Shown: positions 15,058 through 58,536 of the stretch, one piece after another
Layout: each line of letters begins with the position of its first letter
Numbering within the stretch: the stretch's first letter is position 1
DNA from: Fusobacterium perfoetens
GTDB lineage: Bacteria > Fusobacteriota > Fusobacteriia > Fusobacteriales > Fusobacteriaceae
Direction of reading: 5' to 3'
Assembly: GCF_021531595.1 (NCBI RefSeq)
Contig: NZ_JADYUD010000011.1
Location: 1 to 64,000 of the forward strand
DNA length: 64,000 nucleotides
The notes under the pieces: generated by a model
Databases searched by the model: none
Told to the model about the DNA's origin: nothing
What the model saw: only the letters and a program-made list of their open reading frames with translations
Position numbers and translations under genes: made by a program

Positions 15058-15071
15058 AAAAGGGGGGATTT

Positions 15072-16049
15072 ATGGACGGGCTTTTAAAAGAAATAAAAAT
15101 ATCTGAAATTGAAAATGTAAAAATAGGACATGCTGAAAACTTTGAAAGTGGTACAGGGTGTACAGTGATTATTTGTGAAAAAGGAGCTCCAGCTGGTGTT
15201 GATGTAAGAGGGGGAGGACCTGCTTCAAGAGAAACAGAACTTTTAAATCCTGTTGCAGATTGTAAAGGAATTCATGCTCTTCTTTTAAGTGGAGGAAGTG
15301 CATATGGTCTTGATGGGGCTGGAGGAGTAATGAAATATCTTGAAGAAAAAGAAATAGGATTTCCAGTGGGAAAAACAGTTGTTCCTCTTGTGTGTGCTTC
15401 ATGCCTTTTTGATTTAAATGTGGGAGATTATAAAGTAAGACCTGATGCAGAGATGGCTTACAGAGCCTGTGAAGATGCAGAAAATTTAAGAGATGATTCA
15501 GGATGTATAGGAGCAGGTACTGGAGCAACAGTAGGAAAGTTTTTAGGGCCAGAACATACTATGAAGTCAGGGCTTGGATGTTATGCAGTGCAGATAGGAG
15601 AACTGAAAGTAGGTGCAGTTGTTGCAGTTAATGCTCTTGGAGATATTTTTGATGAAAAAACTGGTAAAAAACTTGCAGGAATTTTAAATGAAGATAAAAC
15701 AGGATTCGGAGATACAGAAACAGAATTTTATAAAGTATATAGCAGAATGAAAAATCTTTTTACAGGAAATACAACAATAGGAGCTATAATTACAAATGGA
15801 AAATTTGATAAAGTACAGATGAAAAAGATAGCAGCTATGGCACAGAATGGTTATGCAAGAACTATTCGTCCAGTCCATACTACAGCTGATGGTGACAGTA
15901 TATATGGACTTTCTTCAGGAGATGTAGAAGCAGATTTAAATGTTACTGGAACACTTGCTTCTCTTGTAATGGCTCGTGCTGTAAATAAAGCAATTTTATC
16001 TGCCCAATCAATGTATGGTTATCTTTCTGCAAAAGATGTTCAGAAATAA
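15072..16049 (+). CDS. P1-family (DmpA/BapA-like) N-terminal-nucleophile peptidase
   Basis: The 325-residue protein matches the DmpA-type fold that self-cleaves to free a catalytic Ser or Thr. Signs are VKIGHAENFESGTGCTVIICEKGAPAG at the start (in pieces), RGGGPASRETELLNP, LLSGGSAYGLDGAGGVMKYLEE, the GAGTGATVGK loop, and NTTIGAIITNGKFDK, where a threonine is the probable nucleophile. Known relatives are L-aminopeptidases/D-amidases or beta-peptidyl aminopeptidases. It probably forms an operon with the M20 hydrolase just upstream and has a GGGGGGAT ribosome site. Confidence 0.85.
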   Translation: MDGLLKEIKISEIENVKIGHAENFESGTGCTVIICEKGAPAGVDVRGGGPASRETELLNPVADCKGIHALLLSGGSAYGLDGAGGVMKYLEEKEIGFPVGKTVVPLVCASCLFDLNVGDYKVRPDAEMAYRACEDAENLRDDSGCIGAGTGATVGKFLGPEHTMKSGLGCYAVQIGELKVGAVVAVNALGDIFDEKTGKKLAGILNEDKTGFGDTETEFYKVYSRMKNLFTGNTTIGAIITNGKFDKVQMKKIAAMAQNGYARTIRPVHTTADGDSIYGLSSGDVEADLNVTGTLASLVMARAVNKAILSAQSMYGYLSAKDVQK

Positions 16050-32770: not shown

Positions 32771-33967
32771 TTACTTATAAGCAGCTTCAAGAGCTTGAGT
32801 AAAGTCATTTATTAAATCTTGAGTATTTTCTATTCCTACTGATATTCTTAAAAGACCATCACTTATTCCAATAGCGAGTCTTTCTTCTCTTGTCATGTCA
32901 CTATGAGAACTCATAACAGGATAAGCTATAGAAGTTCTATACCCTCCAAGAGTCATTGCATAATGAGCAAGTTTTAAGTTTCTCATAAATTTATTCATTT
33001 TTTCTAAGTCTTCAGGAAGTTCAATACTCATCATACCACCATAATAATCTCCAAATTGTTCATGTGCTAATGTGTGTTGAGGATTACTTTTAAGACTTGG
33101 ATGATTTACTTTAAGGACATAAGGTGATTTTTCAAGTGCAGCAGCAAGAGCTGAAGCATTTTCACATTGCTTTTTAATTCTAAGTTCTAGAGTTCTCATT
33201 CCTCTCATTGTAAGCCAGCTTGTAAAAGGATCAGATTGAGTTCCAAGAAGAACTTGAAGATTATATATTTTTTTTATAAGTTCAGCTTTACCTGTAACAG
33301 CACCACATACAGCATCACTATGTCCATTTGCAAATTTTGTAAGAGAATTTACAACAAGGTCAGCTCCAAGTTTTAAAGGCTTTACTAAAGCTCCTGTCAT
33401 AAATGTATTGTCAACTATTAAAAGAGCATTATTTTTATGAGCAATTTCAGCTACAGCTTTTAAATTTGGTACTCCTATTAATGGATTTGAAACAGTTTCA
33501 GTGTATAACATAACTGTATTTGGTCTTATATTAGATTTTACTTCTTCTAAATCAGTAAAATCAACAAATGTAGTTTCAACGCCATATTTTCCAAGAATAT
33601 TTGTAAATATTTCAATAGTTTCTCCATAAAGAGTTTTATCAGAAAGAATATGGTCTCCAGCTTTAGTGTGAGCTATAACAGCAGATGAAATTGCAGCCAT
33701 ACCAGAAGAACATCCAATAGAATCTTCTCCTCCTTCCACATAATTCATTAATTCTATAAGAGCAGTTCTATTTGGGTTTCTATTTCTATTATAGCAAAAT
33801 CCTTTTTCATCATATCTTTTTTGAAGATCTGCAAGATCTTCAACATTATGTGCTGTTGACATATGTATTGGAAGAGCTTCTGGATTAGATGCAGATAATC
33901 TAAAATATGCACCAGCTTCAAGAATATTTGTTTCAAATGATAAAGTTTCATCAAAATCTTTAAACAT
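32771..33967 (-). CDS. Trans-sulfuration-family PLP enzyme (C-S lyase-like), copy 1
   Basis: The 398-residue protein has the Cys/Met-metabolism PLP fold: GCSSGMAAISSA for phosphate binding, VDNTFMTGAL with the pyridine-contact Asp, and the PLP lysine in NSLTKFANGHSD. Members include methionine gamma-lyase, cystathionine enzymes and O-acylhomoserine sulfhydrylases. Here the usual NPT is replaced by NPNRTAL, and the residue after YG that is Cys in methionine gamma-lyase is Glu (YGETIEIF), so the substrate is uncertain. It is the last gene of a three-gene operon with a DUF819 protein and an M14 deacylase. A related copy lies divergently at 36478. Confidence 0.85.
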   Translation of the reverse strand: MFKDFDETLSFETNILEAGAYFRLSASNPEALPIHMSTAHNVEDLADLQKRYDEKGFCYNRNRNPNRTALIELMNYVEGGEDSIGCSSGMAAISSAVIAHTKAGDHILSDKTLYGETIEIFTNILGKYGVETTFVDFTDLEEVKSNIRPNTVMLYTETVSNPLIGVPNLKAVAEIAHKNNALLIVDNTFMTGALVKPLKLGADLVVNSLTKFANGHSDAVCGAVTGKAELIKKIYNLQVLLGTQSDPFTSWLTMRGMRTLELRIKKQCENASALAAALEKSPYVLKVNHPSLKSNPQHTLAHEQFGDYYGGMMSIELPEDLEKMNKFMRNLKLAHYAMTLGGYRTSIAYPVMSSHSDMTREERLAIGISDGLLRISVGIENTQDLINDFTQALEAAYK

Positions 33968-34009
33968 ATAAATACCTCCATATTTTAAAATATATTTATT
34001 TGACTATAT

Positions 34010-35185
34010 TTATAATACACGCAGAATTTGTGCTAAAATTAAAACAACATATGTTCCAACAATATTACCTATGAATCCCATTAAAACTCCGAAAGAAATA
34101 TAATTAGGATTATGTTGGGCTGCTATAATAGGAGCAGAAGATACTCCACCAATATTAGCCATAGAAGCTACATGAGCTGTGAATAAATCAAATTTAAATA
34201 TTTTACTAGCTAAAAGCATTCCAATAAGGTGTACAAACAAGAAAATGAAACAGAAAATAATAAATACAGGAGCACCAGTACATTCTTTTAAATTAGACCA
34301 TGAAGCAGTATTAGCAAGACTTAAATATAAAAATACATTTGCAACTGTTGCAGCTGATTTTAAATGATGAAATCTAGTCATTCCTAATGAAATTCCTATA
34401 AGAGAAGAAATTAAAACTCTCCATGTTGAAATGCTCATAAAAGAATTTGTTGGCATTTTGCTAGAAATAAAATGTGTTATCCATGCTCCAGCAAAAGCGA
34501 CAGCAGCTAGTGTTAATAATTCTGTAAAATTTGGTGCAGTATTATCTTTTTTTTCTTGTTCTTTTCCTATTCTTGCAGCTATTTCTTCCAAAACGGATGT
34601 ATCTGCTTTCATTTTTTTATTAAACCAAGTAGTCATAGCATGACTACATGTAGAAAGTAAGAATGCAAACCAAATAGTATACCCAAAAGTATCCATTAAA
34701 ACACAATATGCAAAATCACTACCAGTTACTCCTAAAGCAGCAGCAGCGGCATTCATATTTAATGTATCTCCTATAAATGTTCCAGCTCCAGCACCACATA
34801 TAGCCCAAGCAAAATCAGGAAGCCATTTTTTTAAAACAATAAAAGCTACAATGAATCCAATACAAATAGAAATAGTTCCACAGAAAAATGCTAATATCAT
34901 GCGAGGTCCTAATTTTAATACTTGTCTTACATCACAAGTCAATAAAAACATACAAAGCATTAAAGGTAAAAAATCTTTACTAATCATAGATCTTGCGCCA
35001 TTTAGGCTATCAGAATTTCCATCAAAAAGTCCAAATGTAGCAAATAGAGACATTCCAACAAATATCCATAAAATTGCAGGGAATACTTGAAATAATTTTA
35101 AATGTCCATATTTATCAGTTATTATAAAAACTATTGCCATGAAAATAAGTAAAAAAGATATATAACCAAAGCCAGTTGTTATCAT
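34010..35185 (-). CDS. DUF819-family membrane protein (putative transporter)
   Basis: The 391-residue protein has about ten to twelve hydrophobic segments and the glycine/alanine-rich stretches GAGAGTFIGDTLNMNAAAAALG and ASMANIGGVSSAPIIAAQHNP typical of the DUF819 (YjcL-like) family. Its function is not established; the repeat-like halves suggest a carrier. Its place between the deacylase and the PLP enzyme suggests it imports their substrate, which is inference. A CCTCC complement (minus-strand GGAGGGATAAT) gives the ribosome site. Confidence 0.78.
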   Translation of the reverse strand: MITTGFGYISFLLIFMAIVFIITDKYGHLKLFQVFPAILWIFVGMSLFATFGLFDGNSDSLNGARSMISKDFLPLMLCMFLLTCDVRQVLKLGPRMILAFFCGTISICIGFIVAFIVLKKWLPDFAWAICGAGAGTFIGDTLNMNAAAAALGVTGSDFAYCVLMDTFGYTIWFAFLLSTCSHAMTTWFNKKMKADTSVLEEIAARIGKEQEKKDNTAPNFTELLTLAAVAFAGAWITHFISSKMPTNSFMSISTWRVLISSLIGISLGMTRFHHLKSAATVANVFLYLSLANTASWSNLKECTGAPVFIIFCFIFLFVHLIGMLLASKIFKFDLFTAHVASMANIGGVSSAPIIAAQHNPNYISFGVLMGFIGNIVGTYVVLILAQILRVL

Positions 35186-35208
35186 ATTATCCCTCCTAAT
35201 GTTTAAAA

Positions 35209-36168
35209 TTAAATACCATATGTAATAATAGGATCATCTTTATTTATTGCTAGTGATGTTGTCATGAAAAGAATAATACTATCAAAATCAGAATAATATT
35301 CTGCTAAAGTTTTACCAAAAACATCTTTAATTTCTCCTATTTTTTGTCCTTTTTTTACTCTTTCTTCAAGCTTTACACAAGGATACCAGCAACCAGAAGT
35401 AGTCGCATCAAGATAAACAGCTTTTGTAATTAAGGTAGGTTTTTCTAAAATTGATATAGGAGTCTCTGGTAAAATTTGAAGGAAACGCATAATATTTTTA
35501 ATATCATTTTTATAATTTTCAACTTCTTCTTTAGACCATAATCCTCTTCCGCCTCTTTCAATTAATAAAGATGGAATGCCTCTAATAGCAGCAGAATTAT
35601 AAGCACCAGTAGTAGCACTTGATTTTACTTTATATTTAGCATTAAGAAAATTTGTAGCAAGCTCTGCATAGGCTAAAGCATCTTTATTTTCCCCTATACC
35701 TGGATAATATACATATGGAGGAAGATATTCATGAATATCTCCACCATGAATATCTAAATAGAAGTCTGCTTTATCTTGATATTCTGTGGTCAAAACATAT
35801 GCAATTTTATCACCTAATGTTCCCTCTGGATTTCCAGGGAAAAGTCTATTTATATTTTTTCCATCTTCGGGAAGAATATAAGAAATTCTTGCATAGTAAG
35901 CTGAAATATTAACAGGATGTATTATTATTATTTGTCCTGAAATTTTTTGAGGATCAATTTCTTGAGCTAACTCTATAGCAGCTTCAATACAAGGATATTC
36001 TCCACCATGTATTCCACTTGTTATTAGTAAAGTCTTTCCTTCTTTACTACCATTAATAACAGTTAACGGAAAATTATAGTCTGTGTCTAAAACTTTAGCA
36101 AATCCTGTTTTTTTCTCTCCAGCAGAAACAATCAATCCTCCATAATTTATAGTTTCTTTTATATTCAT
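35209..36168 (-). CDS. Succinylglutamate desuccinylase/aspartoacylase-family (M14) hydrolase
   Basis: The 319-residue protein carries the zinc motifs SGIHGGEYPCIEA (His and Glu) and DFYLDIHGGDIHEY (second His), then IPSLLIERGGRG with a likely catalytic Glu. The C-terminus has a beta-barrel domain with VKKGQKIGEIKDVFGKTLAEY. Such enzymes remove acyl groups from amino acids. ATG 36168 is chosen for its GGAGGGAGC upstream; a longer in-frame start has none. As first gene of the operon it may release an amino acid that the PLP enzyme then splits; the actual substrate is unknown. Confidence 0.82.
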   Translation of the reverse strand: MNIKETINYGGLIVSAGEKKTGFAKVLDTDYNFPLTVINGSKEGKTLLITSGIHGGEYPCIEAAIELAQEIDPQKISGQIIIIHPVNISAYYARISYILPEDGKNINRLFPGNPEGTLGDKIAYVLTTEYQDKADFYLDIHGGDIHEYLPPYVYYPGIGENKDALAYAELATNFLNAKYKVKSSATTGAYNSAAIRGIPSLLIERGGRGLWSKEEVENYKNDIKNIMRFLQILPETPISILEKPTLITKAVYLDATTSGCWYPCVKLEERVKKGQKIGEIKDVFGKTLAEYYSDFDSIILFMTTSLAINKDDPIITYGI

Positions 36169-36263
36169 AAAGCTCCCTCCAATCAGCAATTTTTAATATA
36201 ACATAAAGTGTAACTATATGGCCAAAATAGTTTTCATGTTTTGTATAATAGAATTTTATTTTC

Positions 36264-36283
36264 TATAGTAACTATAGAGTCAA
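36264..36283 (-). promoter_or_regulatory. Promoter/operator box of the minus-strand operon
   Basis: On the minus strand this reads TTGACTCTATAGTTACTATA, in which TTGACT is a good -35 and the rest fills the spacer. It differs at two of 20 positions from the box facing the other way at 36389. A partial third copy, GTAACTATA, is at 36210-36218, near the gene start. Confidence 0.7.
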
Positions 36284-36388
36284 GAGTAAAAATAAAAAAA
36301 GTTCAAATTAAAAATAAATTGATTTATTTTTAGTCTAAAAAGCACAAAAGTAAACGAATAAATAATTTTAAAAAAGCTAAAAAAATAT

Positions 36389-36408
36389 TTGACTCTATTG
36401 CTACTATA
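36389..36408 (+). promoter_or_regulatory. Promoter/operator box of the plus-strand PLP-enzyme gene
   Basis: TTGACTCTATTGCTACTATA embeds a -35 (TTGACT); an AATAAA element follows at 36412-36417 with 17-bp spacing. The same 20-bp arrangement, 18 of 20 identical, faces away at 36264-36283. Both promoters probably answer to one regulator. Confidence 0.7.
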
Positions 36409-36477
36409 TAGAATAAACTTACAATATAAAAGAAAAACAATTAAATTTCAATTAATTTTTTTAAGGAGGATTATAAC

Positions 36478-37668
36478 ATGGAAAGAAAATGTTCTGAAGC
36501 AACAGAATTACTTTACAGAGGAAGAAAAGTTAAAGGAATGGACTTTAATAAACCAGAAGCATTCCCATTATTTACAACAACAGCATTTACAATGAACAGC
36601 TTAACAGAAGTTAAAGAAGCATATGCAAAAAAATATACATATATAAGAACATGTAACCCTAACAGAGATGCTCTTGCAGATATGGTAACATTCCTTGAAG
36701 CTGGAGAAAAATCATTAATATTCTCATCAGGAATGGGAGCAATTACTACTACATTAATGACAATTTTAAAACCTGGTGATCATGTAATTTGCAACAGAAA
36801 TATATATGGTGAAACATTTGATGTATTTACAAAATTAATGCCTAAATTTGGAATTAAAGCAGATCTTGTAGATTTTGATGATGTTGAAAACTGTAGAAAA
36901 GCTGTAAAACCTGAAACTAAATTAATTTATTCAGAAGTTTTTGCTAATCCTACATTAAATATAGCAGACATTCCAACTCTTGCAGAAATAGCTCATAAAA
37001 ATGGTGCATTATTAATGATAGATAATACATTCTCTTCACCAATTGCTATTAAACCAATAAAATTTGGTGCAGATATAGTTATCAACAGTATGACTAAATT
37101 TATGAATGGTCACAGTGATGCAATCGCAGGTTCAATTACTTCAACAGCAGAAATAATAGATGCAATTCACCCTGTAAGAATGCTTTGTGGAACTCCTGGT
37201 GATCCACATGCAGCTCATGCAATGATGAAAAGTTTTGCAACAATGGATCTTCGTATAAAAAAACAAATGGCAAGTGCAGCTAAATTAGCTAAAGCATTAG
37301 AAGAAAACAAATATATATCTAAAGTAAACCACCCAAGTCTTGAAAGTTTTAAACACCATGATTTAGCTCTAAAACTATTTGGTTCAAATGAAACAATGAG
37401 TGGAATGATGAGTTTTATAGTTCCAGAAGATTCTGAAAAAATAGATAAATTTTTATTAAGATTAAACTTCGCTCACTATGCAATGACATTAGGAGGAGTT
37501 CGTACAACTCTTGTTCACCCAGTAACAAGTTCTCATAGCCATATGCCAGATGAAGCAAGAAGAGCAATGGGAATCACTCCAGGATTATTTAGACTTTCAG
37601 TTGGAATTGAAGATGTTGATGATTTAATTGCAGATTTTACTCAAGCTCTTGAAGTGTTTGGAGAATAA
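36478..37668 (+). CDS. Trans-sulfuration-family PLP enzyme (C-S lyase-like), copy 2
   Basis: This 396-residue protein is a paralogue of the one at 32771-33967. It shares FSSGMGAITTT, IDNTFSSPIAIKP, the PLP lysine in NSMTKFMNGHSDAI, FAHYAMTLGGVRT and the C-terminal LSVGIEDVDDLI. It also has the same unusual NPNRDAL and YGETFDVF segments instead of NPT and YGC/YGG. The two copies therefore form one subgroup distinct from standard methionine gamma-lyases. A strong AAGGAGG site precedes the ATG. It is divergent from the deacylase operon and ends at its own terminator. Confidence 0.87.
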   Translation: MERKCSEATELLYRGRKVKGMDFNKPEAFPLFTTTAFTMNSLTEVKEAYAKKYTYIRTCNPNRDALADMVTFLEAGEKSLIFSSGMGAITTTLMTILKPGDHVICNRNIYGETFDVFTKLMPKFGIKADLVDFDDVENCRKAVKPETKLIYSEVFANPTLNIADIPTLAEIAHKNGALLMIDNTFSSPIAIKPIKFGADIVINSMTKFMNGHSDAIAGSITSTAEIIDAIHPVRMLCGTPGDPHAAHAMMKSFATMDLRIKKQMASAAKLAKALEENKYISKVNHPSLESFKHHDLALKLFGSNETMSGMMSFIVPEDSEKIDKFLLRLNFAHYAMTLGGVRTTLVHPVTSSHSHMPDEARRAMGITPGLFRLSVGIEDVDDLIADFTQALEVFGE

Positions 37669-37692
37669 TCTGATATAATTTATCAAACTGTT

Positions 37693-37719
37693 AAAGGGTG
37701 TCAAAAAAGACACCCTTTT
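37693..37719 (+). terminator. Terminator after PLP-enzyme copy 2
   Basis: AAAGGGTGTC pairs perfectly with GACACCCTTT around AAAAAA. It overlaps a spurious upstream start of the following gene. Confidence 0.93.
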
Positions 37720-37745
37720 ATTATAAATATCAAAAAGGAGAGAAT

Positions 37746-38408
37746 ATGAGAATAGCGATAGATAACAGTGTAAAAGAAAAAGTTGAGAGTGTAAGGCTTG
37801 GATGTTTGATTTATGATACAGAGGTTAAAGAAAAGAATGAAGAGTTGTGGAGAAAGTTTGAGGATGAAATTTTTCCACAGCTTATCTCTGCAATAGAAGA
37901 AAAAGGAATCAGTGGAATTGAAAATGTTTCTTCATCTAAAAAAGCATATAAATATTTAGGAAAAGATCCAAATCGTTATAGAGTTTCTTCAGAAGCTCTT
38001 TATAGGAGAATAAAGCAAAGAAAGGGACTATATCAAATAAACACAGTAGTTGATGTAAATAATTTAATATCTTTAGAAACAGGTTTTTCAGTAGGTTCTT
38101 ATGATTTAAAGAATGTAAAAGGGGATATTATTTTAAGAAAAGGAAAAGAAGGAGAAACTTATAAAGGAATAGGAAAAGATGATATAAATATAGAAAATCT
38201 TCCAATACTTACTGATAGTGAGGGAGCTTTTGGAAGCCCAACAAGTGATAGCACAAGAGTTATGGTTACATTAGATTCTAAAAAAATACTTACACTTATT
38301 TATTGTTTTTCAAAAAATGAAAATTTAAATATAACTTTAGAGAGTTCAAAAGTGTATTTAGAGGAATATGCTGGAGCAAAAAATATAGAATTATTTATAA
38401 TAGAATAA
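37746..38408 (+). CDS. B3/B4-domain protein (PheT-like editing domain, stand-alone)
   Basis: The roughly 220-residue protein resembles the free-standing B3/B4 fold of phenylalanyl-tRNA synthetase beta subunit: LGKDPNRYRVSSEALYRRIKQRKGLYQINTVVDVNN (in pieces), SLETGFSVGSYD and DSEGAFGSPTSDSTR. Such proteins may edit misacylated tRNA or amino acids, but evidence is thin. ATG 37746 follows AAAGGAGAG; an earlier ATG at 37698 lies within a terminator and is rejected. It probably shares a transcript with the EamA and MATE genes after it. Confidence 0.78.
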   Translation: MRIAIDNSVKEKVESVRLGCLIYDTEVKEKNEELWRKFEDEIFPQLISAIEEKGISGIENVSSSKKAYKYLGKDPNRYRVSSEALYRRIKQRKGLYQINTVVDVNNLISLETGFSVGSYDLKNVKGDIILRKGKEGETYKGIGKDDINIENLPILTDSEGAFGSPTSDSTRVMVTLDSKKILTLIYCFSKNENLNITLESSKVYLEEYAGAKNIELFIIE

Positions 38409-38424
38409 AGATATGGTGGTGAAA

Positions 38425-39309
38425 ATGAAAAAAATATCATATTTATTAGTTATAACAGCAGCTGTTCTTTGGGGAGCAATAGGTTTTTTTTCAAAGACAG
38501 CAGGAGGAATAGGATTTACTCCCATTGATATGTGTTTTATTCGTTCTGTTTTTTCAGTAATTATTTTGGGAGTTTTCTTTTTTATAAAGGATAGAAGTAT
38601 TTTTAAATTAGAGAGTATAAAAGATTTAAAATATTTTGTAGGGACAGGAATAATAAGTTTTTCTCTATATAACTGGAGTTATATAGCTGCAATTAAAGAA
38701 ACTTCAATGGGAGTTGCAGCAATACTTTTATATACTGCTCCATCAATAATAATGGTACTTTCAGCAATACTTTTTAATGAAAAAATAACAAAAGTAAAAT
38801 TAGTGGCATTAATTATAACTTTTATAGGTTGTATGTTAGTTACAGGAATTTTTGAAGGTGGAAATATAATATCTTTAAAAGGATTTATATATGGAATTCT
38901 TTCGGGAATAGGTTATGGGCTTTATAGTATTTTTGGGAAATATGCTCTTAGAAAATACTCTTCAGTTACAGTAGTGTTTTATACTTTTTTAATGTCAGGA
39001 ATTTTATTTAGTATATTAGGAAATCCTATTAATATAATTTCAAAAATAGGTGCAACAAATTCTTGGCTTTTCATAATTGCTTTTGCAGCTTTTTCAGCAG
39101 CTATTCCTTACATATTATATACTAAAGGTCTTTCAGGTATAGAAGCAAGTAAAGCATCAATTCTTGCTAATATGGAACCAGTAGTAGCATCAATTATAGG
39201 TATTGTCGTATTTTCAGAAGAAGCAGGATTTTTAAAGCTTTTTGGAATATTTATGGTAATAGGTGCTGTATGTATGATAAATTTAAGTGAAAGTTTTGAA
39301 AAAAAATAA
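38425..39309 (+). CDS. DMT/EamA-family permease
   Basis: The protein of about 294 residues has two EamA repeats with ten membrane segments. The N-terminus is LVITAAVLWGAIGFFSKTAGG, and GIEASKASILANMEPVVASIIGIVVFSEE is the typical end of repeat two. The substrate is unknown. ATG 38425 follows GGTGGTGA; an ATG four codons earlier has no ribosome site. It is intact, unlike the related gene at the left end of the window. Confidence 0.85.
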   Translation: MKKISYLLVITAAVLWGAIGFFSKTAGGIGFTPIDMCFIRSVFSVIILGVFFFIKDRSIFKLESIKDLKYFVGTGIISFSLYNWSYIAAIKETSMGVAAILLYTAPSIIMVLSAILFNEKITKVKLVALIITFIGCMLVTGIFEGGNIISLKGFIYGILSGIGYGLYSIFGKYALRKYSSVTVVFYTFLMSGILFSILGNPINIISKIGATNSWLFIIAFAAFSAAIPYILYTKGLSGIEASKASILANMEPVVASIIGIVVFSEEAGFLKLFGIFMVIGAVCMINLSESFEKK

Positions 39310-39329
39310 AAGCAATTTGGAAGTGGCTT

Positions 39330-40637
39330 ATGGAAAATAAAAATATAATAACACAAAAAGAATTTTTATATTTAATGATTCCATTTATCTTTTCAGCAGT
39401 GACACAACCTCTTCTTGGAGCTGTAGATGTTGCTGTTGTAGGAAGGCTTAATAATGCCAATTATATTTCAGGAGTTTCAATAGGAGCACTTATTTTTAAT
39501 ACAATATATTGGGTTTTTGGATTTTTAAGGGTTAGTACAACTGCTTTTAGTGCTCAAAGTATAGAATGGGAAAGTAAAGAAAAAGTTAGTGATGCTTTTT
39601 TTAGACCTTTATTTACAGCTTGTATAATAAGTTTTTTAATTATTATATTTCAAAATATAATTTTTAAAGGATCAATGAAATTTATAAATCCTGAAATAGA
39701 AATACAAAAAATAGTAAGTATTTATTTTAAAATATTAGTATGGGGAGCACCTTTAGTGCTTTGTAATTATGTTATTCTTGGTTGGCTTATGGGACAGGGG
39801 AATATAAAAGGTTCTGTAATGATGCAAATGAGTAGTAATATTTTAAATATAATTTTAGATATATTTTTTGTTACAGTTATGGATTTAAAAGTGGAAGGAG
39901 TAGCAATAGCTACTTTTATATCTCAAGGAATTTCAACTTGTCTAGGAATATATTTTATTCTTCCCTATAAGTATGAAAAATCTTTTAATATGAGAAGTAT
40001 TTTAGATAGAAAAGAACTTAGAAAAGTTTTAAGTGGAAATAAGGATCTTATGATAAGAACAGTTTGTCTACTTATGCATGATAACATGATTATGGCAGCA
40101 AGTGCATCTTTAGGTGGTTGGATATTAAGTACAAATGCAGTTTTGCTTCACATACTTGAAATGATTTCTTACAGTTTTGAAGGTTTAGCTAATGCTTCAA
40201 GTGTATTTTCAGGCAGAGCTGTAGGTGGAAAAAATAAAGAATTAATGAAAGCAGCGTGGAAGAAAACAATTCAGTGGGGAATAGTTTTTGCAGTATTTAC
40301 TTCAGGAATTTTTACTATATTTAATGATAATATAGTAAAAATGTTTACAGATATTCCTGAAATTATTTCTTTATCAGAAAAATATGGATTTTGGATTATA
40401 ATTTTTCCTTTTATAAGTGTTTTAGGACTTATATTTTATGGTGTATTTACAGGAGCAGGATCAACATTTCCTGTTATGATTTCAACTGTAGGAGCATTTA
40501 TAGTTTTTTTCTTTTCTTGGAAATTTACAATACCACTATATAAAAATAATGGTATTTGGTTTTCATTAATGACTTTTTATTTTTTTAGGGGGATATTTTT
40601 AGTTCCAAATTTAAAAAAACTTTTAAAAAAAATATAA
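39330..40637 (+). CDS. MATE-family efflux protein (DinF-like)
   Basis: The 435-residue protein has twelve hydrophobic segments in two bundles and the DinF-type start FLYLMIPFIFSAVTQPLLGAVDVAVVGRL. MATE proteins export drugs or metabolites using sodium or proton gradients. It follows the EamA gene by 20 bp and ends at a strong terminator shared with the convergent MerR gene. Confidence 0.87.
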   Translation: MENKNIITQKEFLYLMIPFIFSAVTQPLLGAVDVAVVGRLNNANYISGVSIGALIFNTIYWVFGFLRVSTTAFSAQSIEWESKEKVSDAFFRPLFTACIISFLIIIFQNIIFKGSMKFINPEIEIQKIVSIYFKILVWGAPLVLCNYVILGWLMGQGNIKGSVMMQMSSNILNIILDIFFVTVMDLKVEGVAIATFISQGISTCLGIYFILPYKYEKSFNMRSILDRKELRKVLSGNKDLMIRTVCLLMHDNMIMAASASLGGWILSTNAVLLHILEMISYSFEGLANASSVFSGRAVGGKNKELMKAAWKKTIQWGIVFAVFTSGIFTIFNDNIVKMFTDIPEIISLSEKYGFWIIIFPFISVLGLIFYGVFTGAGSTFPVMISTVGAFIVFFFSWKFTIPLYKNNGIWFSLMTFYFFRGIFLVPNLKKLLKKI

Positions 40638-40641
40638 TCTT

Positions 40642-40685
40642 AAAAAAGGTTACTGCATTGTGTGTATACTGCAATAACCTTTTTT
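40642..40685. terminator. Bidirectional terminator between the MATE and MerR genes
   Basis: AAAAAAGGTTA...TAACCTTTTTT (40642-40652 with 40675-40685), reinforced by an inner TGCA/TGCA pair. A and T runs on both sides allow it to serve both strands. Confidence 0.9.
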
Positions 40686-40703
40686 ATTATTTAAAAGTAA
40701 AAT

Positions 40704-41510
40704 TTATTCTTGAGGAATTAAAATTTGTACTTCATAGACAGCTCTTGAATATTCATGCAAGCTATTTTCATATTCATTTGCAAGGACAATAGCTGGTTTC
40801 TTTTTTCCTTGAAAGAAAAGTTTTGTTAAATAAGGATTCCATCCTTCGCTTAAAATTCTTGCTTTAAAACATAAGTAATCTCCAGCAGGAATTTCAAGAA
40901 TATTTTTTGAATGTTCTTCAGGTGCATCTTTTATAAACATTCCTAAATAAAGTGGTTTTAATTCACCATTCATTAAAGCATCGTAATCCAGAATATATGA
41001 AAATTGTCTCATATATTTAAGGTGTTTACATTCGTTACTGTTTCTAATTTCATTGAGTCTTATATGAAAATCTTCTTTTGGTTCATTTTCTATAATTTTT
41101 GTTGCTACTATATGTCTTTCTTCAAGATGAAGAATATAGGAGTGATCATCTATACTTCCTTCTCCTACATAAGTGAAATAATCTTTATACCATTTAATAC
41201 TATCGATAGTATCCTTTAATTTACTTATTTCTTCTTCTAAAGAATTTTTACATTTGTCTAGGTATTTTACAAGAATATCTATATTATCTTCAGCCAAAAT
41301 TTCTTTTATTTCTTCAAGAGATAGACCGAATTTTTGAAGATATTTTATTCTATCAATAAAGTGAAATTGATTGACAGAATAATAACGATATCCTGTAGAA
41401 GGATTTATATATTTTGGAGCAAGTAAATTAATATTATCATAATGTCTTAATGTTTGTACGGAAACTCCCATTATTTCAGCAACTTCACCAATTGAGTATA
41501 AATCTTTCAT
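40704..41510 (-). CDS. MerR-family regulator with effector-binding domain
   Basis: The 268-residue protein begins with a MerR winged helix (LYSIGEVAEIMGVSVQTLRHYDNINLLAPKYI in pieces; then TGYRYYSVNQFHFIDRIKYLQKFGLSLEEIKEIL). A coiled coil at about residues 80-110 and a GyrI-like ligand domain follow. This build is that of BmrR/BltR multidrug regulators. It lies between two MATE pump genes, divergent from the second. A minus-strand TATAAT (around 41560) and AAAGGAGAAA precede it. It may control one or both pumps; no operator is proven. Confidence 0.87.
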   Translation of the reverse strand: MKDLYSIGEVAEIMGVSVQTLRHYDNINLLAPKYINPSTGYRYYSVNQFHFIDRIKYLQKFGLSLEEIKEILAEDNIDILVKYLDKCKNSLEEEISKLKDTIDSIKWYKDYFTYVGEGSIDDHSYILHLEERHIVATKIIENEPKEDFHIRLNEIRNSNECKHLKYMRQFSYILDYDALMNGELKPLYLGMFIKDAPEEHSKNILEIPAGDYLCFKARILSEGWNPYLTKLFFQGKKKPAIVLANEYENSLHEYSRAVYEVQILIPQE

Positions 41511-44915: not shown

Positions 44916-47747
44916 TTGGAAAATATTTTACTTGAAAGTTTAAAGACAAGTCTTTTAGATACCAATATAGAATCAAGCCAAAATTACCAGCATAGGCTTT
45001 TATGTAATAAAGATGAAAAAATAATAATAGATTTAAGGAAAGAACTGGAAAACTGTGATGAATTTATAATCTCTGTAGCTTTTATAACTGAAGGAGGGCT
45101 TTCTCTTATTCTTGAACAGTTAAAAATTCTTGAAGAAAAGGGGATACAGGGAAAAATTCTTACAGGAGATTATCTTACCTTCACAGAACCTAAAGCTCTT
45201 AAAAGAATTTTAAAGTATAAAAATATTGAGCTTAAAATTCTTTCAGGAGAAAAATTTCATGCAAAGGGATATTTTTTTAAGAGAGGTAATCTGTGGACAA
45301 TGGTAGTTGGCAGCAGTAACCTTACACAGCAGGCTCTTACAGTAAATTTTGAATGGAATCTTAAAATAAATTCATTGGAAACAGGAAAGACTGCCTGTGA
45401 TATTATAGGGAAGTTTAATAAAATCTTTAATAATCTTCCAAAAACAGATGAAAAAATCATTGAAGATTATGAAATAGCATATAAAAAGGCAAAAGAATAT
45501 GAAAGGGAGAGAAAGAAGACAAGAGAGAGGGAAAAAGAAAGAAATATAACTCCTAACATAATGCAGGAAAGAGCACTTGAAAGCCTTAAAGATTTAAGAA
45601 AAAAAGAAAATAGAGGTCTTCTTATAAGTGCAACAGGAACAGGAAAAACATATCTTTCAGCCTTTGATGTAAAAAATGCAAATCCTAAAAAAATTCTTTT
45701 TACTGCTCATAGAAAAACAATTCTTCAGAAAGCAAGAAAGACTTTTGAAAGTATAATGGGAAATTTAAAAACAGCAATATATGGAGAAGAGGATATATCA
45801 GGGGCAGACTGTATTTTTGCAATGATACAGACACTTAGCAGAGAGAATCACTTAAAAAAATTTTTACCAGAAGAATTTGATTATATAATAGTTGATGAAG
45901 TACATCACAGTGGTGCAAAAAGTTATCAGAAAGTTATAAATTATTTTAAGCCTGAATTTATGCTTGGAATGACAGCAACTCCAGAAAGAACAGATGATTT
46001 TGATATATATGGACTTTTTAATCATAATATAGCTTATGAAATAAGACTTTATGATGCTTTGGAAGAAAATCTTCTTTGTCCTTTTCATTATTTTGGTATA
46101 TCAGATATTATTATAGATGGAGAAAGTATAGATGAAAAAACTGCTGTTAAAAAACTTGTGATGGAGGAAAGAGTAAATCATATAATAGAAAAAAGCAGAT
46201 ATTATGGTTATAGTGGAGATAAACTTCATGGGCTTATTTTTGTTTCAAGAAAAGAGGAAGCTGAAATTCTATGTGAAAAGTTTAATGAAAAAGGTGTAAA
46301 AACAGCTTTTCTTATAGGGGACGACAGTGATGAAAAAAGAGAAAAAACAATAGAACAGCTTGAAAAAGGAGAGATAGAATATATAATCACAGTGGATATT
46401 TTTAATGAAGGGGTAGACATTCCATGTGTAAATCAAGTTATTCTTTTAAGACCTACAGAATCTTCTATTGTATATATACAACAGCTTGGAAGAGGGCTTA
46501 GAAAAGATCCTGATAAAGAATTTGTTGTTGTTCTTGACTTTATAGGAAACTATGAGAAAAACTTTTTAATTCCAACTGCAATTTCTCAAAATAACAGCTT
46601 TGATAAGGATTTTATGAAAAGATTTCTTATGAATGGAACAAATATGATTCCTGGAGAAAGCTCTGTTATCTTTGAAGAGGTTGTAAAAGAAAGAATTTTT
46701 GAAAATATAGGTAAAACAAATTTTTCTACTAAAAAGAATATTGAGCATGACTTTAAACTCCTAGAAAAACAACTTGGAAGAATTCCTATGCTATATGATT
46801 TTTTTGAAAGAAATATGATAGAACCTTCTGTTATTTTAAAGTATAAGAAAAATTATGATGAGGTTTTAAGAATTTTAAAGCCAAGAGAAGAATTCCCATA
46901 CCTTTCAGATGAAGAAAAAAATTATCTTACATTTCTATCTTCATTTTTCACACCAGCTAAGAGAGTGCATGAGATGGTATTTTTAAATGAATGCTTAAGA
47001 AGTGGAAGGATAACATCTGCTTTTGGAGAAGAGATTCTTTTTGAAAAATATGGGCTTAAAAATCAGAAAGAAGCAGTTTTAAATGCACTTAAGCATTTAG
47101 CAAAGGAGATTTTTAAAAGCTTATCAACTGCCAAAGAATTTAATCCTATATTTATAAATAAAAATGGAGTGTATGAATTATCTTGTGGCTTTAAAGAGTG
47201 CTATGATAAAAATAGTTATTTTAAATCCCTTATAGATGATTTAATAAAATATAATTTGGCTTACACTGAAAAAAATTATAAGCAGAATGAAGAAGAAACG
47301 ATTTTAAAGTATAAGGAATATACAAAACAAGAAGCTTTCTGGAATCTTAACCTTGATTTTAATAATGGATATCAGGTAAGTGGATACACAGTTTTTGAAG
47401 AGGAAAAAAAGGTAATGCTTTTTATAACTCTTGAGGATACAAATCCTCTTTCAAACTATCAAAATAATTTTATAGATTCTCAAAGATTTCCATGGTTTTC
47501 AAAAAGCAACAGATGTCTTTCAAGAAATGGTATTTTAACAGCAGAAGGAAAAATTGCTGAAAACATTTATACAATGTATGCTTTTGCAAAGAAAAAGTCA
47601 GGAGAGAAATTTTATTATTTAGGAGAAGTGGAAAAGGTTTTAAATGCACAGGAGATAGAGGGAAAAAGAGGAGAGCCACTTGTAAAATATGAGCTTAAGC
47701 TTAAATATGAGGTTAAGAAAGAACTTTTTGATTATTTACATGGATAA
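44916..47747 (+). CDS. PLD-domain DEAD/DEAH helicase with DUF3427 C-terminus
   Basis: The 943-residue protein begins with a phospholipase-D-like nuclease region (about 30-190) with HAKGYFFKRG...VVGSSNLTQQAL. A superfamily 2 helicase follows: Walker A SATGTGKTYLS near residue 240, DEVHHSGA, TATPERTDD, and the second RecA domain with VDIFNEGVDIPCVNQV and QQLGRGLRK. The last 350 residues match the DUF3427 layout. Such proteins are scattered in bacteria and are suspected to act in DNA repair or defence; the precise role is unknown. The start is TTG at 44916, supported by AAGGAGG seven bases upstream. It stands alone after the palindrome. Confidence 0.85.
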   Translation: MENILLESLKTSLLDTNIESSQNYQHRLLCNKDEKIIIDLRKELENCDEFIISVAFITEGGLSLILEQLKILEEKGIQGKILTGDYLTFTEPKALKRILKYKNIELKILSGEKFHAKGYFFKRGNLWTMVVGSSNLTQQALTVNFEWNLKINSLETGKTACDIIGKFNKIFNNLPKTDEKIIEDYEIAYKKAKEYERERKKTREREKERNITPNIMQERALESLKDLRKKENRGLLISATGTGKTYLSAFDVKNANPKKILFTAHRKTILQKARKTFESIMGNLKTAIYGEEDISGADCIFAMIQTLSRENHLKKFLPEEFDYIIVDEVHHSGAKSYQKVINYFKPEFMLGMTATPERTDDFDIYGLFNHNIAYEIRLYDALEENLLCPFHYFGISDIIIDGESIDEKTAVKKLVMEERVNHIIEKSRYYGYSGDKLHGLIFVSRKEEAEILCEKFNEKGVKTAFLIGDDSDEKREKTIEQLEKGEIEYIITVDIFNEGVDIPCVNQVILLRPTESSIVYIQQLGRGLRKDPDKEFVVVLDFIGNYEKNFLIPTAISQNNSFDKDFMKRFLMNGTNMIPGESSVIFEEVVKERIFENIGKTNFSTKKNIEHDFKLLEKQLGRIPMLYDFFERNMIEPSVILKYKKNYDEVLRILKPREEFPYLSDEEKNYLTFLSSFFTPAKRVHEMVFLNECLRSGRITSAFGEEILFEKYGLKNQKEAVLNALKHLAKEIFKSLSTAKEFNPIFINKNGVYELSCGFKECYDKNSYFKSLIDDLIKYNLAYTEKNYKQNEEETILKYKEYTKQEAFWNLNLDFNNGYQVSGYTVFEEEKKVMLFITLEDTNPLSNYQNNFIDSQRFPWFSKSNRCLSRNGILTAEGKIAENIYTMYAFAKKKSGEKFYYLGEVEKVLNAQEIEGKRGEPLVKYELKLKYEVKKELFDYLHG

Positions 47748-52298: not shown

Positions 52299-53174
52299 TT
52301 ACTTCCTATTTATTAATGAAGAAGAGAGGAAATCCATGAATTTTTCAGTACCTGATTTTCTTCTGCTTTCTCCAGTGCAGCAAATGGGAAAACACATTTC
52401 AGAAATTCTGTCTTTTATTCTTGTGCCAAAGGTTTTTACAATGGCACATTTTAAATTGTCTCTGCTGTACTCAAGATTTGTTGTGATTATAAGAGGTTTT
52501 TCAGCCCTGTATCTTGTGTCAATTAAAAGAAATATCTTTTCAAGACTCCACTCTGATATTTTTTCACAACCTAAGTCATCAATAATAAGAAGGTCACAGA
52601 GAGATATTTTTTCAAGAATTTCATTTTCAGCCTTTCCCCATTCAACCTTAAGCTTTCCAAGATAAAGCCCAAGATTTATAGCAATAACTGTTTTTCTCCT
52701 TTCAGTGAGATAATTTCCTATACAGGCAGCAGCAAAAGTTTTTCCAGTTCCAGAGTTTCCATAAAATAAAATTCCTGCATCTCCTTTGGACTTCATAAAG
52801 CTTTCAGCATATTTAAGAGATATTTCCATATGCCTTCCTGTTAAATCTGCTTTTTCAAAGGTTGAATTTAAAAACCTTGAATCAATAATAGAAAAATTTT
52901 TGTATTTATTCACCTTGTTTTTTATTCTTTCCTCCCTTGCCTTTCTGTCAAATTCAGCAAGATCCCTTTCATAGAGAGTTTCATGGCAGGTACAGCTTGG
53001 AATATATCTTATCTTGTCCCCTAAAATATTAATCATCTCTTCAGGAAGAGTGTGATTTTTTATATATGGCTTTCCACAGATACTGCATTTTTTAAAACTG
53101 TGATATTCAGGTTCTTTTGCTTTTAAATCTTTATTTTCAAAATCTAAAATATTATTTCTAGTTATTATTTTCAT
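52299..53174 (-). CDS. DnaC/IstB-type AAA+ ATPase (helicase loader-like)
   Basis: The 291-residue protein has an N-terminal zinc-like cluster (CSICGKPY near residue 31 and CTCHETLY) and then an AAA+ core. Walker A is GNSGTGKTFAAACIGNYL near residue 140, Walker B is LLIIDDLGCEK, and RPLIITTNL-like sensor 1 reads KPLIITTNLEYS. It matches DnaC/DnaI helicase loaders and the IstB family. There is no adjacent transposase, so a replication role is favoured. It is the last gene of a four-gene minus cassette whose second gene resembles DnaD. Confidence 0.8.
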   Translation of the reverse strand: MKIITRNNILDFENKDLKAKEPEYHSFKKCSICGKPYIKNHTLPEEMINILGDKIRYIPSCTCHETLYERDLAEFDRKAREERIKNKVNKYKNFSIIDSRFLNSTFEKADLTGRHMEISLKYAESFMKSKGDAGILFYGNSGTGKTFAAACIGNYLTERRKTVIAINLGLYLGKLKVEWGKAENEILEKISLCDLLIIDDLGCEKISEWSLEKIFLLIDTRYRAEKPLIITTNLEYSRDNLKCAIVKTFGTRIKDRISEMCFPICCTGESRRKSGTEKFMDFLSSSLINRK

Positions 53175-53177
53175 AAT

Positions 53178-53972
53178 TTAAAACCCCATTTTCTTAAGTG
53201 CTTCAAGGGCTTCTTCATCTTCCTGATAGAGAGGCTCTTCTGTAATTTTGTTTTTTACAGGATTTCTTTCTGAATAAGTTCCATTAAGGGCTTTTTTTAG
53301 ATTTTTTATATTAAATATCATGTTAATGCTGAAGGTCTTTGCATATTCATTCTGACTCATAATCTCCATAGCCTTAAAGAGCCGTGAAGCTCCAAGAGCC
53401 TGAATACAATTTACAAAAACACTGTTTTCAGGAAGAAATTCATAACTAGGAAGTCCAAGTTCAGCATATTTTTTCATAATGTCCTGAATAAAAGGGGGAC
53501 AATTTTCAGGCATTATATATTTATTTATGATTTTATTAGTATGATTATTATTAGTATGATCTTTGGTATGAAAATTTTTCATAGGGGGGCATGAAATTTT
53601 TTCATCGCCCCCTTGAAGATTTTTCATGGGAGGGGGTGAAAGTTTTTCATATGCTTTCCCAAGAGAAAAATATAAATATGTTCCTGATTTATTATTTTTT
53701 TCATTTTTTACTGTTTTTCTTAAAAATCCTTTTTCACAAAGCTTTGAAATTCTGTTTATAAGAGTTCTTTCAGTTCCAATAATTGGGATTTCATTTAAAA
53801 TATATTTATAAGTGAGCCATATATATTTTATGCTGTTTTCACAGATAACTTCAAATTTATCAGATGTGCTGAAAAACATATCTGCAATAACCCTTAAAAT
53901 AAGGGCATCTTCTGAATTTAAACCATATTCCATAAGGATATCCTGAGGATAGCCATATATATTAAATTTCAT
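53178..53972 (-). CDS. DnaD-like replication protein with winged-helix N-terminus
   Basis: The 264-residue protein has a likely winged-helix region (about 15-110: LNSEDALILRVIADMF...GTERTLINRISKLCEKGFLRKTVK), as in replication initiators and DnaD. A low-complexity linker contains a duplicated PPMKN (SPPPMKNLQ and CPPMKNFH) and HTNNNHTNK. The helical C-terminal domain (about 160-235) fits a DnaB/DnaD-type domain. It ends three bases before the helicase-loader gene. A chromosomal loader pair or a relic of a phage or plasmid are both possible. Confidence 0.6.
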   Translation of the reverse strand: MKFNIYGYPQDILMEYGLNSEDALILRVIADMFFSTSDKFEVICENSIKYIWLTYKYILNEIPIIGTERTLINRISKLCEKGFLRKTVKNEKNNKSGTYLYFSLGKAYEKLSPPPMKNLQGGDEKISCPPMKNFHTKDHTNNNHTNKIINKYIMPENCPPFIQDIMKKYAELGLPSYEFLPENSVFVNCIQALGASRLFKAMEIMSQNEYAKTFSINMIFNIKNLKKALNGTYSERNPVKNKITEEPLYQEDEEALEALKKMGF

Positions 53973-53993
53973 TTTCTCCCTCCTGATTTAATT

Positions 53994-54452
53994 TTAGTCT
54001 CTTAAAAATGGAAGAATACCTTCAGTTACAATAAATTTTCTTTTTCCTCTTTTAAAAGAAAGTATCTCTCCATTGTCTATAGCTTTATAAATGCTGTTTT
54101 GATTCATTTTTAAAAATCTTGAAAGCTCTTTCACTGAAGTGACAGTCCCTAGCTCTTTTTTCATTTTATCAAGGAGCATTTTTTCAAATTCACTTCTTGG
54201 TTTAGAAGCTTTTATAAGGTATTCATTAATTTCATCTTCTATATTTTCAGCCATTTTCCATATTCTCCTTTGTTTATTTTCCCTTCTTATTTCTTTTTTT
54301 ATGATTTTAATTTTTTCATCAAGTTCTTGTTTTTCTCTTTGGGCACAGACGAGCCTGAACTCGTCTATGTCAAGATTATCAAAGAGAAATCTAAATCTTT
54401 CCCTTACACACTGAGAACTGTTTATACTTAAATCTTTCTTTTCAGTGTTCAT
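53994..54452 (-). CDS. Helix-turn-helix protein, cassette gene 2
   Basis: The 152-residue protein has a charged coiled-coil-like middle (EKQELDEKIKIIKKEIRRENKQ in pieces). Its C-terminal DNA-binding segment VKELSRFLKMNQNSIYKAIDNGEI...FIVTEGILPFL resembles excisionase/MerR-type helix-turn-helix domains. The same C-terminal pattern occurs in the overlapping upstream gene. It starts inside the end of that gene (11-base overlap). Function unknown; regulation of the cassette is plausible. Confidence 0.6.
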   Translation of the reverse strand: MNTEKKDLSINSSQCVRERFRFLFDNLDIDEFRLVCAQREKQELDEKIKIIKKEIRRENKQRRIWKMAENIEDEINEYLIKASKPRSEFEKMLLDKMKKELGTVTSVKELSRFLKMNQNSIYKAIDNGEILSFKRGKRKFIVTEGILPFLRD

Positions 54453-54891: not shown

Positions 54892-54964
54892 TTTAGTTTT
54901 TCTCCTTTTCTTTAAAAAATTTAAGCAGAGAAATTTCTCTAAAACAAACCACATGTGTGACAGA

Positions 54965-54993
54965 ATTATATAAAAAAGTTTCAAAAATGTCAA
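54965..54993 (-). promoter_or_regulatory. Consensus promoter of the replication-like cassette
   Basis: Minus strand TTGACA (54988-54993), 17 bp, TATAAT (54965-54970): a perfect sigma-70 promoter. Upstream of it lies the 16-bp dyad AAAAGTGAACACTTTT (55056-55071), a possible regulator site. Confidence 0.8.
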
Positions 54994-58438: not shown

Positions 58439-58484
58439 TAAATAAAATCTAAATTAAATAAGCACCCAAATAAAAATCCTTAAT

Positions 58485-58536
58485 AAAAACAGAACTCAGT
58501 CTTGGTGTGAAAACACTGGGGCTGAGTTTTGTTTTT
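58485..58536 (+). terminator. Terminator after autotransporter 1
   Basis: AAAAACAGAACTCAG (58485-58499) pairs with CTGAGTTTTGTTTTT (58522-58536) with one wobble. The loop arm also pairs (GGTGT with ACACT). Nearly the same sequence ends autotransporter 2. Confidence 0.9.

What the first reader, a model, noticed from the sequence alone, without database searches (positions are those of the whole stretch)
32771..37668. Uncharacterised module: M14 deacylase, DUF819 protein and two atypical C-S lyase-like enzymes
Both PLP enzymes share NPNRxAL instead of NPT and YGET where methionine gamma-lyase has a catalytic Cys, so they form a separate subgroup. With a deacylase and a membrane protein of unknown substrate in one operon, a pathway importing an N-acyl or related amino-acid derivative, freeing the amino acid and then cleaving it is plausible. 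Products could include thiols, H2S or 2-oxo acids. The assignment is inference from context.
Basis: partly seen in the sequence, partly recalled or inferred. Interest (0 to 1): 0.62.

Follow-up and report, generated by a model that had tools for sequence, protein, structure and literature searches.

The report
MerR-controlled toxic amino-acid lyase module
Two unusual vitamin-B6 enzymes in this gut-type anaerobe belong to a mobile, jointly regulated gene set that appears to import and break down a toxic amino-acid compound while a tRNA-proofreading-type protein keeps the poison out of proteins; the compound may be azetidine-2-carboxylate, possibly released from the plant metal chelator nicotianamine.

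Summary
The four genes are real and the shared NPNR/YGET residues are confirmed. A tree puts both PLP enzymes in their own clade, apart from methionine gamma-lyase, CGS/CGL, OAH sulfhydrylase and canavanine gamma-lyase. They are not one operon: three genes run leftward, the second PLP gene rightward. Both arms carry the same MerR-type promoter (TTGACT, 19-bp spacer), the only two such sites in the genome. Among 98 Fusobacteriia genomes this B3/4 occurs in exactly the four with the first PLP enzyme; in Clostridia MAGs the pair recurs. M14 and DUF819 are a replaceable importer arm. Clostridial versions add a HAD hydrolase related to azetidine-2-carboxylate hydrolase, D-2-hydroxyacid dehydrogenase, 2-oxoacid:ferredoxin oxidoreductase and beta-alanyl-CoA ammonia-lyase, a complete putative route for azetidine-2-carboxylate (AZC), a toxic proline analogue. 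Best reading: lyases that split an amino-acid conjugate into 2-oxoacids and a toxic analogue, with tRNA proofreading. AZC, and nicotianamine as its source, are inferences. No evidence for thiols or H2S.

The parts
32771..33967 (-). PLP1, Cys/Met-metabolism PLP enzyme of the NPNR/YGET clade (E116, E119, R344)
   Evidence: PF01053 394 bits; tree; motif table
34010..35185 (-). DUF819 membrane protein, presumed importer
   Evidence: PF05684 E 4e-79; paired with M14 again in L041; a relative sits beside a dipeptide-epimerase-like gene in L201
35209..36168 (-). AstE/AspA-type M14 deacylase, presumed
   Evidence: PF24827 E 5e-23; metal ligands conserved; relatives sit with Nik/Cnt-type ABC and MATE genes in other Fusobacteriia
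36253..36283 (-). MerR-type promoter of the left arm: TTGACT, 19 bp, TAAAAT
   Evidence: only two such sites in the genome
36389..36419 (+). MerR-type promoter of the right arm: TTGACT, 19 bp, TAAACT
36478..37668 (+). PLP2, paralogue of PLP1 (E112, D115, R342)
   Evidence: PF01053 374 bits; tree
37693..37718 (+). hairpin followed by T-rich tract between PLP2 and the B3/4 gene (possible attenuator or terminator)
   Evidence: fold -18.4 kcal/mol for the 79-nt gap; similar hairpins in L094-L096 and different ones in L039/L040
37746..38408 (+). standalone B3/4 (tRNA-editing-type) protein
   Evidence: PF03483 E 3e-21; 4/98 genome co-occurrence with PLP1; next to PLP1 in 10 of 12 loci
38413..39309 (+). 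EamA/DMT transporter, presumed exporter
   Evidence: PF00892 E 1e-47; 86-88% identical and syntenic in L094-L096
39330..40637 (+). MATE transporter, probable member
   Evidence: PF01554; 54-62% to MATE genes beside M14 in other Fusobacteriia; absent from the module in L094-L096
40704..41510 (-). MerR-family regulator
   Evidence: PF13411 E 2e-18; 69-87% identical in L039-L041 and L094-L096, always with the module

Best explanation
The finding is most of a MerR-controlled, horizontally spread module (32771-41510) for taking up and breaking down a toxic amino-acid compound. An importer arm (DUF819 plus M14 deacylase here; AGCS or a Nik/Opp-like ABC transporter in relatives) brings it in. Two paralogous PLP lyases of a distinct NPNR/YGET clade eliminate a leaving group, most likely an amine, giving 2-oxo acids. 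The released toxic analogue is kept out of proteins by the B3/4 protein, which would deacylate mischarged tRNA, and is exported by EamA (MATE), or, in Clostridia, opened by a HAD hydrolase and fermented. The analogue is most likely L-azetidine-2-carboxylate. Shown: gene content, clade, regulon, co-occurrence, linkage in other phyla. Inferred: every substrate, the C-N cleavage, the tRNA species, the direction of export.
For: Clade. MerR-type promoters on both arms, 0.10 expected and 2 found, none elsewhere in the genome. In G100, a genome of another phylum where the genes are unlinked, the same element precedes PLP2, the HAD gene, M14-DUF819-PLP1 and AGCS. B3/4 in exactly the 4 of 98 Fusobacteriia genomes with PLP1; PLP1 and B3/4 linked in 10 of 12 loci, including Clostridia MAGs. 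HAD in 7 of 8 non-fusobacterial carriers tested, nearest solved relatives include L-azetidine-2-carboxylate hydrolase. L155/L156 also encode D-2-hydroxyacid dehydrogenase, a VorB-type 2-oxoacid oxidoreductase and beta-alanyl-CoA:ammonia lyase (E 2e-45 to PDB 4mtu). Precedent: canavanine lyase with the B3/4 protein CtdA (PMC10018355). AZC is a toxic proline analogue opened by a HAD hydrolase (PMC8016842).
Against: The HAD is only about 30% identical to AC hydrolase and absent from all fusobacterial carriers tested, including the window genome. The scheme gives M14/DUF819 no necessary step. This B3/4 is not of the CtdA family (16-19% to inferred CtdA proxies) and no tRNA substrate is known for its type; Bacteroides relatives sit among housekeeping genes. 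Paralogues with the same YGET motif sit beside BCCT and NhaC carriers, so the motif does not fix one substrate. MAG loci carry binning risk.
Confidence: 0.42

Rival explanations
1. Canavanine utilisation: the PLP enzymes are canavanine gamma-lyases giving homoserine and hydroxyguanidine, and B3/4 is a canavanyl-tRNA(Arg) deacylase.
For: Same combination of a Cys/Met-type PLP lyase and a B3/4 protein as in the known system (PMC10018355); Glu in the YGET loop could bind a cationic group.
Against: Inferred canavanine-lyase proxies from rhizobial operons lack NPN/YGET and fall in another clade; B3/4 only 16-19% to CtdA proxies and E 0.001 to solved CtdA 9f7e; no guanidine riboswitch found by Rfam in the window segment or seven related loci; no homoserine dehydrogenase seen in the module; HAD and beta-alanyl-CoA lyase unexplained.
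Confidence: 0.1
2. 2,4-Diaminobutyrate or N-acetyl-diaminobutyrate breakdown: M14 removes the acyl group, the PLP enzyme gamma-eliminates ammonia to give 2-oxobutyrate.
For: M14's only NCBIfam hit is DoeB; a Klebsiella plasmid ectoine operon has doeA-doeB directly followed by a CGS-family PLP gene.
Against: M14 only 27% to that DoeB and far below cut-off; the Klebsiella PLP enzyme lacks YGET and lies outside the clade; near relatives with the same PLP pair have no M14 in the module; does not call for HAD.
Confidence: 0.13
3. Ordinary sulfur amino-acid lyases (Met, Cys, S-methylcysteine or similar) in a generic amino-acid fermentation cluster; the B3/4 link is incidental.
For: Fold and best solved relatives are methionine gamma-lyases; adjacent 2-oxoacid oxidoreductases.
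Against: MGL cysteine replaced by Glu throughout the clade and the R119/E339 pair swapped to E-or-D/R; the genome already has two canonical MGL-like enzymes with YGCT; B3/4 co-occurrence and shared regulon.
Confidence: 0.2
4. Self-protection against a peptide-borne antibiotic amino acid (Trojan-horse type): M14 and PLP enzymes destroy the warhead, EamA/MATE export it, B3/4 proofreads.
For: Two exporter-type genes, a MerR regulator and a tRNA-editing-type protein, mobile distribution.
Against: Catabolic partners in relatives (oxidoreductases, beta-alanyl-CoA lyase, importers) argue for nutrition rather than pure defence.
Confidence: 0.1

Closest known systems
Canavanine gamma-lyase plus CtdA system of Pseudomonas canavaninivorans and Rhizobium
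   Same: Cys/Met-type PLP lyase coupled to a standalone B3/4 protein and a transporter
   Different: Both protein families are different branches (32-36% and 16-19% identity to inferred proxies); no homoserine dehydrogenase/aldehyde dehydrogenase pair; MerR control
Methionine gamma-lyase (MegL; e.g. PDB 7bqw, 9qm6)
   Same: Fold, PLP lysine, carboxylate Arg, about 40% identity
   Different: YGET for YGCT, NPN for NPT, swapped 119/339 ion pair, separate clade
L-azetidine-2-carboxylate hydrolase (HAD) of Pseudomonas sp. A2C
   Same: HAD type II gene linked to PLP1 in Clostridia and, with a CsaA gene, in L042 (CsaA beside AC hydrolase in A2C is from memory)
   Different: About 30% identity; absent from the fusobacterial carriers
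Ectoine catabolic operon with DoeB and a CGS-family PLP gene (Klebsiella plasmid, L167)
   Same: AstE/AspA-type deacylase directly beside a Cys/Met-type PLP enzyme
   Different: Different clades for both proteins, Ehu importer, no B3/4 in the stretch shown
Nik/Cnt (nickel, opine metallophore) ABC importers
   Same: Relatives of the window's M14 and MATE sit with such ABC genes; a Nik/Opp-like ABC precedes PLP1-B3/4 in L156
   Different: None in the window module, which has DUF819; the L156 binding protein is below the NikA and CntA cut-offs

Membership tests
Methionine gamma-lyase (TIGR01328) | score over the curated cut-off (549.7 bits) | tested here: not met
   PLP1 321, PLP2 314 bits
Methionine gamma-lyase (TIGR01328) | catalytic-loop Cys (YGCT) | tested here: not met
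   YGET in both and throughout the clade
Cys/Met-metabolism PLP enzymes (PF01053) | domain over cut-off, PLP lysine and carboxylate Arg kept | tested here: met
   394 and 374 bits, cut-off 27; TKF and RISVG/RLSVG
Canavanine gamma-lyase | falls in the clade of operon-linked proxies | tested here: not met
   separate, SH-aLRT 99 for the NPNR/YGET clade; proxies inferred from gene order only
Canavanine gamma-lyase | releases hydroxyguanidine from canavanine | not testable with these tools
   enzyme assay needed
Standalone B3/4 domain proteins (PF03483) | domain over cut-off without the rest of PheT | tested here: met
   76 bits, cut-off 29.3; 220 aa
CtdA canavanyl-tRNA deacylase | close sequence relation to CtdA | tested here: not met
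   16-19% to proxies; E 0.001 to 9f7e
AstE/AspA-type M14 deacylases (PF24827) | domain over cut-off and zinc ligands | tested here: met
   82 bits, cut-off 25; HGGE and IHGG
DoeB N-acetyl-diaminobutyrate deacetylase (TIGR02994) | score over the equivalog cut-off (402.7) | tested here: not met
   86.5 bits
DUF819 (PF05684) | domain over cut-off | tested here: met
   266.7 bits, cut-off 27
MerR-activated promoters | -35 and -10 separated by 19 bp with a dyad in the spacer | tested here: met
   both window sites and sites in L039-L041, L043, L094-L096; binding itself not tested
AC hydrolase (clostridial HAD) | HAD type II with DxxGT nucleophile motif, nearest to AC hydrolase | tested here: inconclusive
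   best hits 8hp5 and 3smv/8ywo, about 30% identity
beta-Alanyl-CoA:ammonia lyase (L156) | full-length match to the characterised enzyme | tested here: met
   4mtu E 2e-45, residues 1-137; below the lysine-pathway Kal cut-off, 151.7 of 160

The most novel reading that the evidence does not exclude
The module is a bacterial nicotianamine-degradation pathway. Two successive PLP gamma-lyases strip the two 3-amino-3-carboxypropyl units from the plant metallophore, using an amine as leaving group held by the YGET glutamate, giving two 2-oxobutyrate and one azetidine-2-carboxylate. The B3/4 protein is a new trans-editing factor for azetidinyl-tRNA(Pro); AZC is exported in Fusobacteria and fermented through 2-hydroxy-4-aminobutyrate, 4-amino-2-oxobutyrate and beta-alanyl-CoA in Clostridia.
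Probability: 0.2. Interest if true: 0.87.

Novelty: new variant of a known kind. Interest (0 to 1): 0.66.

Why it matters
Only one B3/4 trans-editing specificity (canavanyl-tRNA) was found in the papers searched here; this would be a second case in which bacteria pair destruction of a toxic amino acid with tRNA proofreading. If the AZC or nicotianamine reading holds, it gives a bacterial fate for a widespread plant metal chelator in animal guts, links diet, metal availability and a proteotoxic proline analogue, and makes a clade of 'methionine gamma-lyase-like' enzymes assignable by simple assays.

Tried and rejected
Canavanine: rejected as membership. Thiol/H2S production: no supporting partner found. 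A guanidine riboswitch: none. Reading the Glu339-to-Arg change as proof of an anionic substrate: dropped, because Lys/Arg there is common in OAH-sulfhydrylase-like sequences and it pairs with an acid at 119. Fold comparison: AlphaFold models of B3/4 (pLDDT 58) and DUF819 (pLDDT 36) were too poor to search with. The original AC hydrolase paper is not held. Literature on DUF819 gave only an M15-DUF819 pair in Neisseria and general fold papers.
Full report
What is there. The window lies in a 2.06-Mb fusobacterial-type genome (36 contigs; the taxon is inferred from the best match of a housekeeping gene to Fusobacterium, and from gene content). The four genes of the finding are real. PLP1 (32771-33967), DUF819 (34010-35185) and an AstE/AspA-type M14 protein (35209-36168) run leftward; PLP2 (36478-37668) runs rightward. 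They are therefore two divergent units, not one operon. To the right follow a standalone B3/4-domain protein (37746-38408), an EamA transporter (38413-39309), a MATE transporter (39330-40637) and a convergent MerR-family regulator (40704-41510).

The enzymes. PLP1 and PLP2 (46% identical) score 394 and 374 bits to PF01053 and are nearest to methionine gamma-lyases among solved structures, but every NCBIfam equivalog cut-off shown is missed by a wide margin. In an alignment of 103 full homologues the NPN and YGET motifs mark one group; catalytic Lys and carboxylate Arg are kept. Measured on the 29 YGE sequences, position 119 (human CGL numbering, from memory) is acidic and 339 is Arg in 25, Gln/Arg in 2, and both change together in the remaining 2; among 74 others the same acid/Arg pair occurs once. 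So the R119/E339 pair of CGL is replaced by an acid/Arg pair and a further Glu takes the place of the MGL cysteine. A maximum-likelihood tree (76 rows, quick mode) puts PLP1-type, PLP2-type and two MerR-linked paralogues in one clade (SH-aLRT 99), PLP1 (95) and PLP2 (100) each single, apart from MGL, CGS/CGL/MccB, OAHS and canavanine-lyase proxies.

The module and its regulation. In three complete relatives of another genus (G076-G078) the unit MerR, EamA, B3/4, PLP2, PLP1 is syntenic (78-96% identity), but PLP1 is followed by an AGCS amino-acid carrier, and M14 and DUF819 are missing from the unit. None of six other genomes of the window's own genus has PLP1 at this level. Clostridia MAGs L039/L040 have PLP1-PLP2-B3/4 beside MerR, and Bacillota MAG L041 has MerR, B3/4, M14-DUF819-PLP1. 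This pattern indicates horizontal spread. A 31-bp MerR-type promoter (TTGACT, 19-bp spacer, -10) lies in front of both arms: two exact hits in 64 kb against 0.10 expected, and these are the only two in the whole genome. The same element precedes both arms in G076-G078, PLP2 and the HAD gene in L039/L040, PLP2 in L043 and, more weakly, the PLP genes of L097 and L099. The best test is G100, where genes are unlinked: its four sites precede M14-DUF819-PLP1, PLP2, an AGCS carrier 61% identical to that of G076, and a HAD gene that runs off the contig. That is a regulon, found independently of gene order. MerR binding itself is inferred.

The B3/4 protein. In 98 Fusobacteriia genomes this B3/4 type occurs only in the four PLP1 carriers. 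The naive chance of the same four is 3e-7, but three of the four are close relatives, so the number overstates independence. Over PLP1 loci, B3/4 is within a few genes in 10 of 12; the other two, L042 and L043, end near a contig end. B3/4 domains edit mischarged tRNA in PheRS, and a standalone member, CtdA, deacylates canavanyl-tRNA(Arg) beside a canavanine gamma-lyase (PMC10018355). The window protein is not CtdA: 16-19% to proxies that I inferred from rhizobial operons holding B3/4, ABC, PLP, homoserine dehydrogenase and aldehyde dehydrogenase genes, and E 0.001 to the solved CtdA. The window genome has a second copy (77%) elsewhere among housekeeping genes.

Clues to the chemistry. In clostridial loci L153, L155 and L156, PLP1 and B3/4 sit with 2-oxoacid:ferredoxin oxidoreductases of two types, a HAD type II hydrolase, and (L155, L156) a D-2-hydroxyacid dehydrogenase. 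The HAD is present in 7 of 8 non-fusobacterial PLP1 carriers and none of the four fusobacterial ones. Its nearest solved relatives are (S)-2-haloacid dehalogenases and L-azetidine-2-carboxylate hydrolase, about 30% identical. In L042 the HAD remnant is followed by a CsaA-type tRNA-binding protein, the neighbour I recall for AC hydrolase in Pseudomonas A2C. AC hydrolase gives 2-hydroxy-4-aminobutyrate (PMC8016842). From that I predicted, in the notebook, oxidation to 4-amino-2-oxobutyrate, conversion to beta-alanyl-CoA, and a beta-alanyl-CoA ammonia-lyase; a Kal-family hit was already known, and the later PDB search returned beta-alanyl-CoA:ammonia lyase 2 as the only match, E 2e-45. L156 carries, in one direction, a Nik/Opp-like ABC importer, a sodium-pump decarboxylase beta subunit, PLP1, B3/4, the oxidoreductase, HAD, the dehydrogenase, IclR, this lyase and a third PLP enzyme.

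Proposed mechanism. AZC is a toxic proline analogue (PMC8016842). Nicotianamine is AZC carrying two 3-amino-3-carboxypropyl units (PMC10341464). Two gamma-lyases acting in turn would yield two 2-oxobutyrate and AZC, explain why carriers hold at least two enzymes of this clade or its sister clade, why an acidic residue that could bind a cation takes the place of the MGL cysteine, why 2-oxoacid oxidoreductases and metallophore-type importers recur, and why a tRNA editing factor is needed. These steps are inference. M14/DUF819 have no necessary step in it, and Fusobacteria lack the HAD, so they would have to export AZC. Relatives of the M14 and MATE genes travel with Nik/Cnt-type ABC genes in other Fusobacteriia, which at least fits a metallophore theme.

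Rivals. Canavanine is disfavoured on family membership. Diaminobutyrate has a real precedent in a Klebsiella ectoine operon where doeB is followed by a CGS-family PLP gene, but neither protein is an orthologue. Plain sulfur-amino-acid lyases cannot be excluded by sequence, yet the genome already has two YGCT enzymes and the B3/4 link would be unexplained.

Verdict. The subgroup claim is right, the operon claim wrong, the pathway idea right in outline and now sharper: a regulated, mobile, toxic-amino-acid catabolic module with a tRNA-proofreading-type partner. Substrate identity remains to be shown.

Noticed in passing
window 37693-37718; L094-L096, L039, L040: A hairpin followed by Ts lies between PLP2 and B3/4, with differing stems in relatives; B3/4 expression may be attenuated or separate.
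   Followed up: partly
L137 5383-6045 (G000 C8): Second standalone B3/4 copy, 77% identical, in the window genome among housekeeping genes.
   Followed up: partly
L095 7464-8130: B3/4 gene of G077 is split by a frameshift.
   Followed up: partly
L167 6672-10098: Klebsiella plasmid ectoine operon: doeA-doeB followed by a CGS-family PLP gene, possibly a diaminobutyrate lyase.
   Followed up: partly
L130-L136: Other Fusobacteriia carry Nik/Cnt-type ABC, often MATE, and an M14 relative side by side, a possible metallophore system.
   Followed up: partly
L057 1757, L058 7917, L052 3696: PLP homologues of Elusimicrobia and Bacillota with canavanine-lyase-like motifs; L057 and L058 group with the canavanine-lyase proxies in the tree.
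   Followed up: no
window 44916-47747: 943-aa protein that reads like a PLD-type plus helicase fusion.
   Followed up: no
window 13843-16049: Carbamoylase/M20-like gene followed by a DmpA-like (P1) peptidase gene, perhaps another amino-acid derivative pathway.
   Followed up: no
window 52299-54993 and 55472-62584: A block of small replication-type (DnaC-like) genes next to two autotransporter genes, possibly a mobile-element remnant.
   Followed up: no
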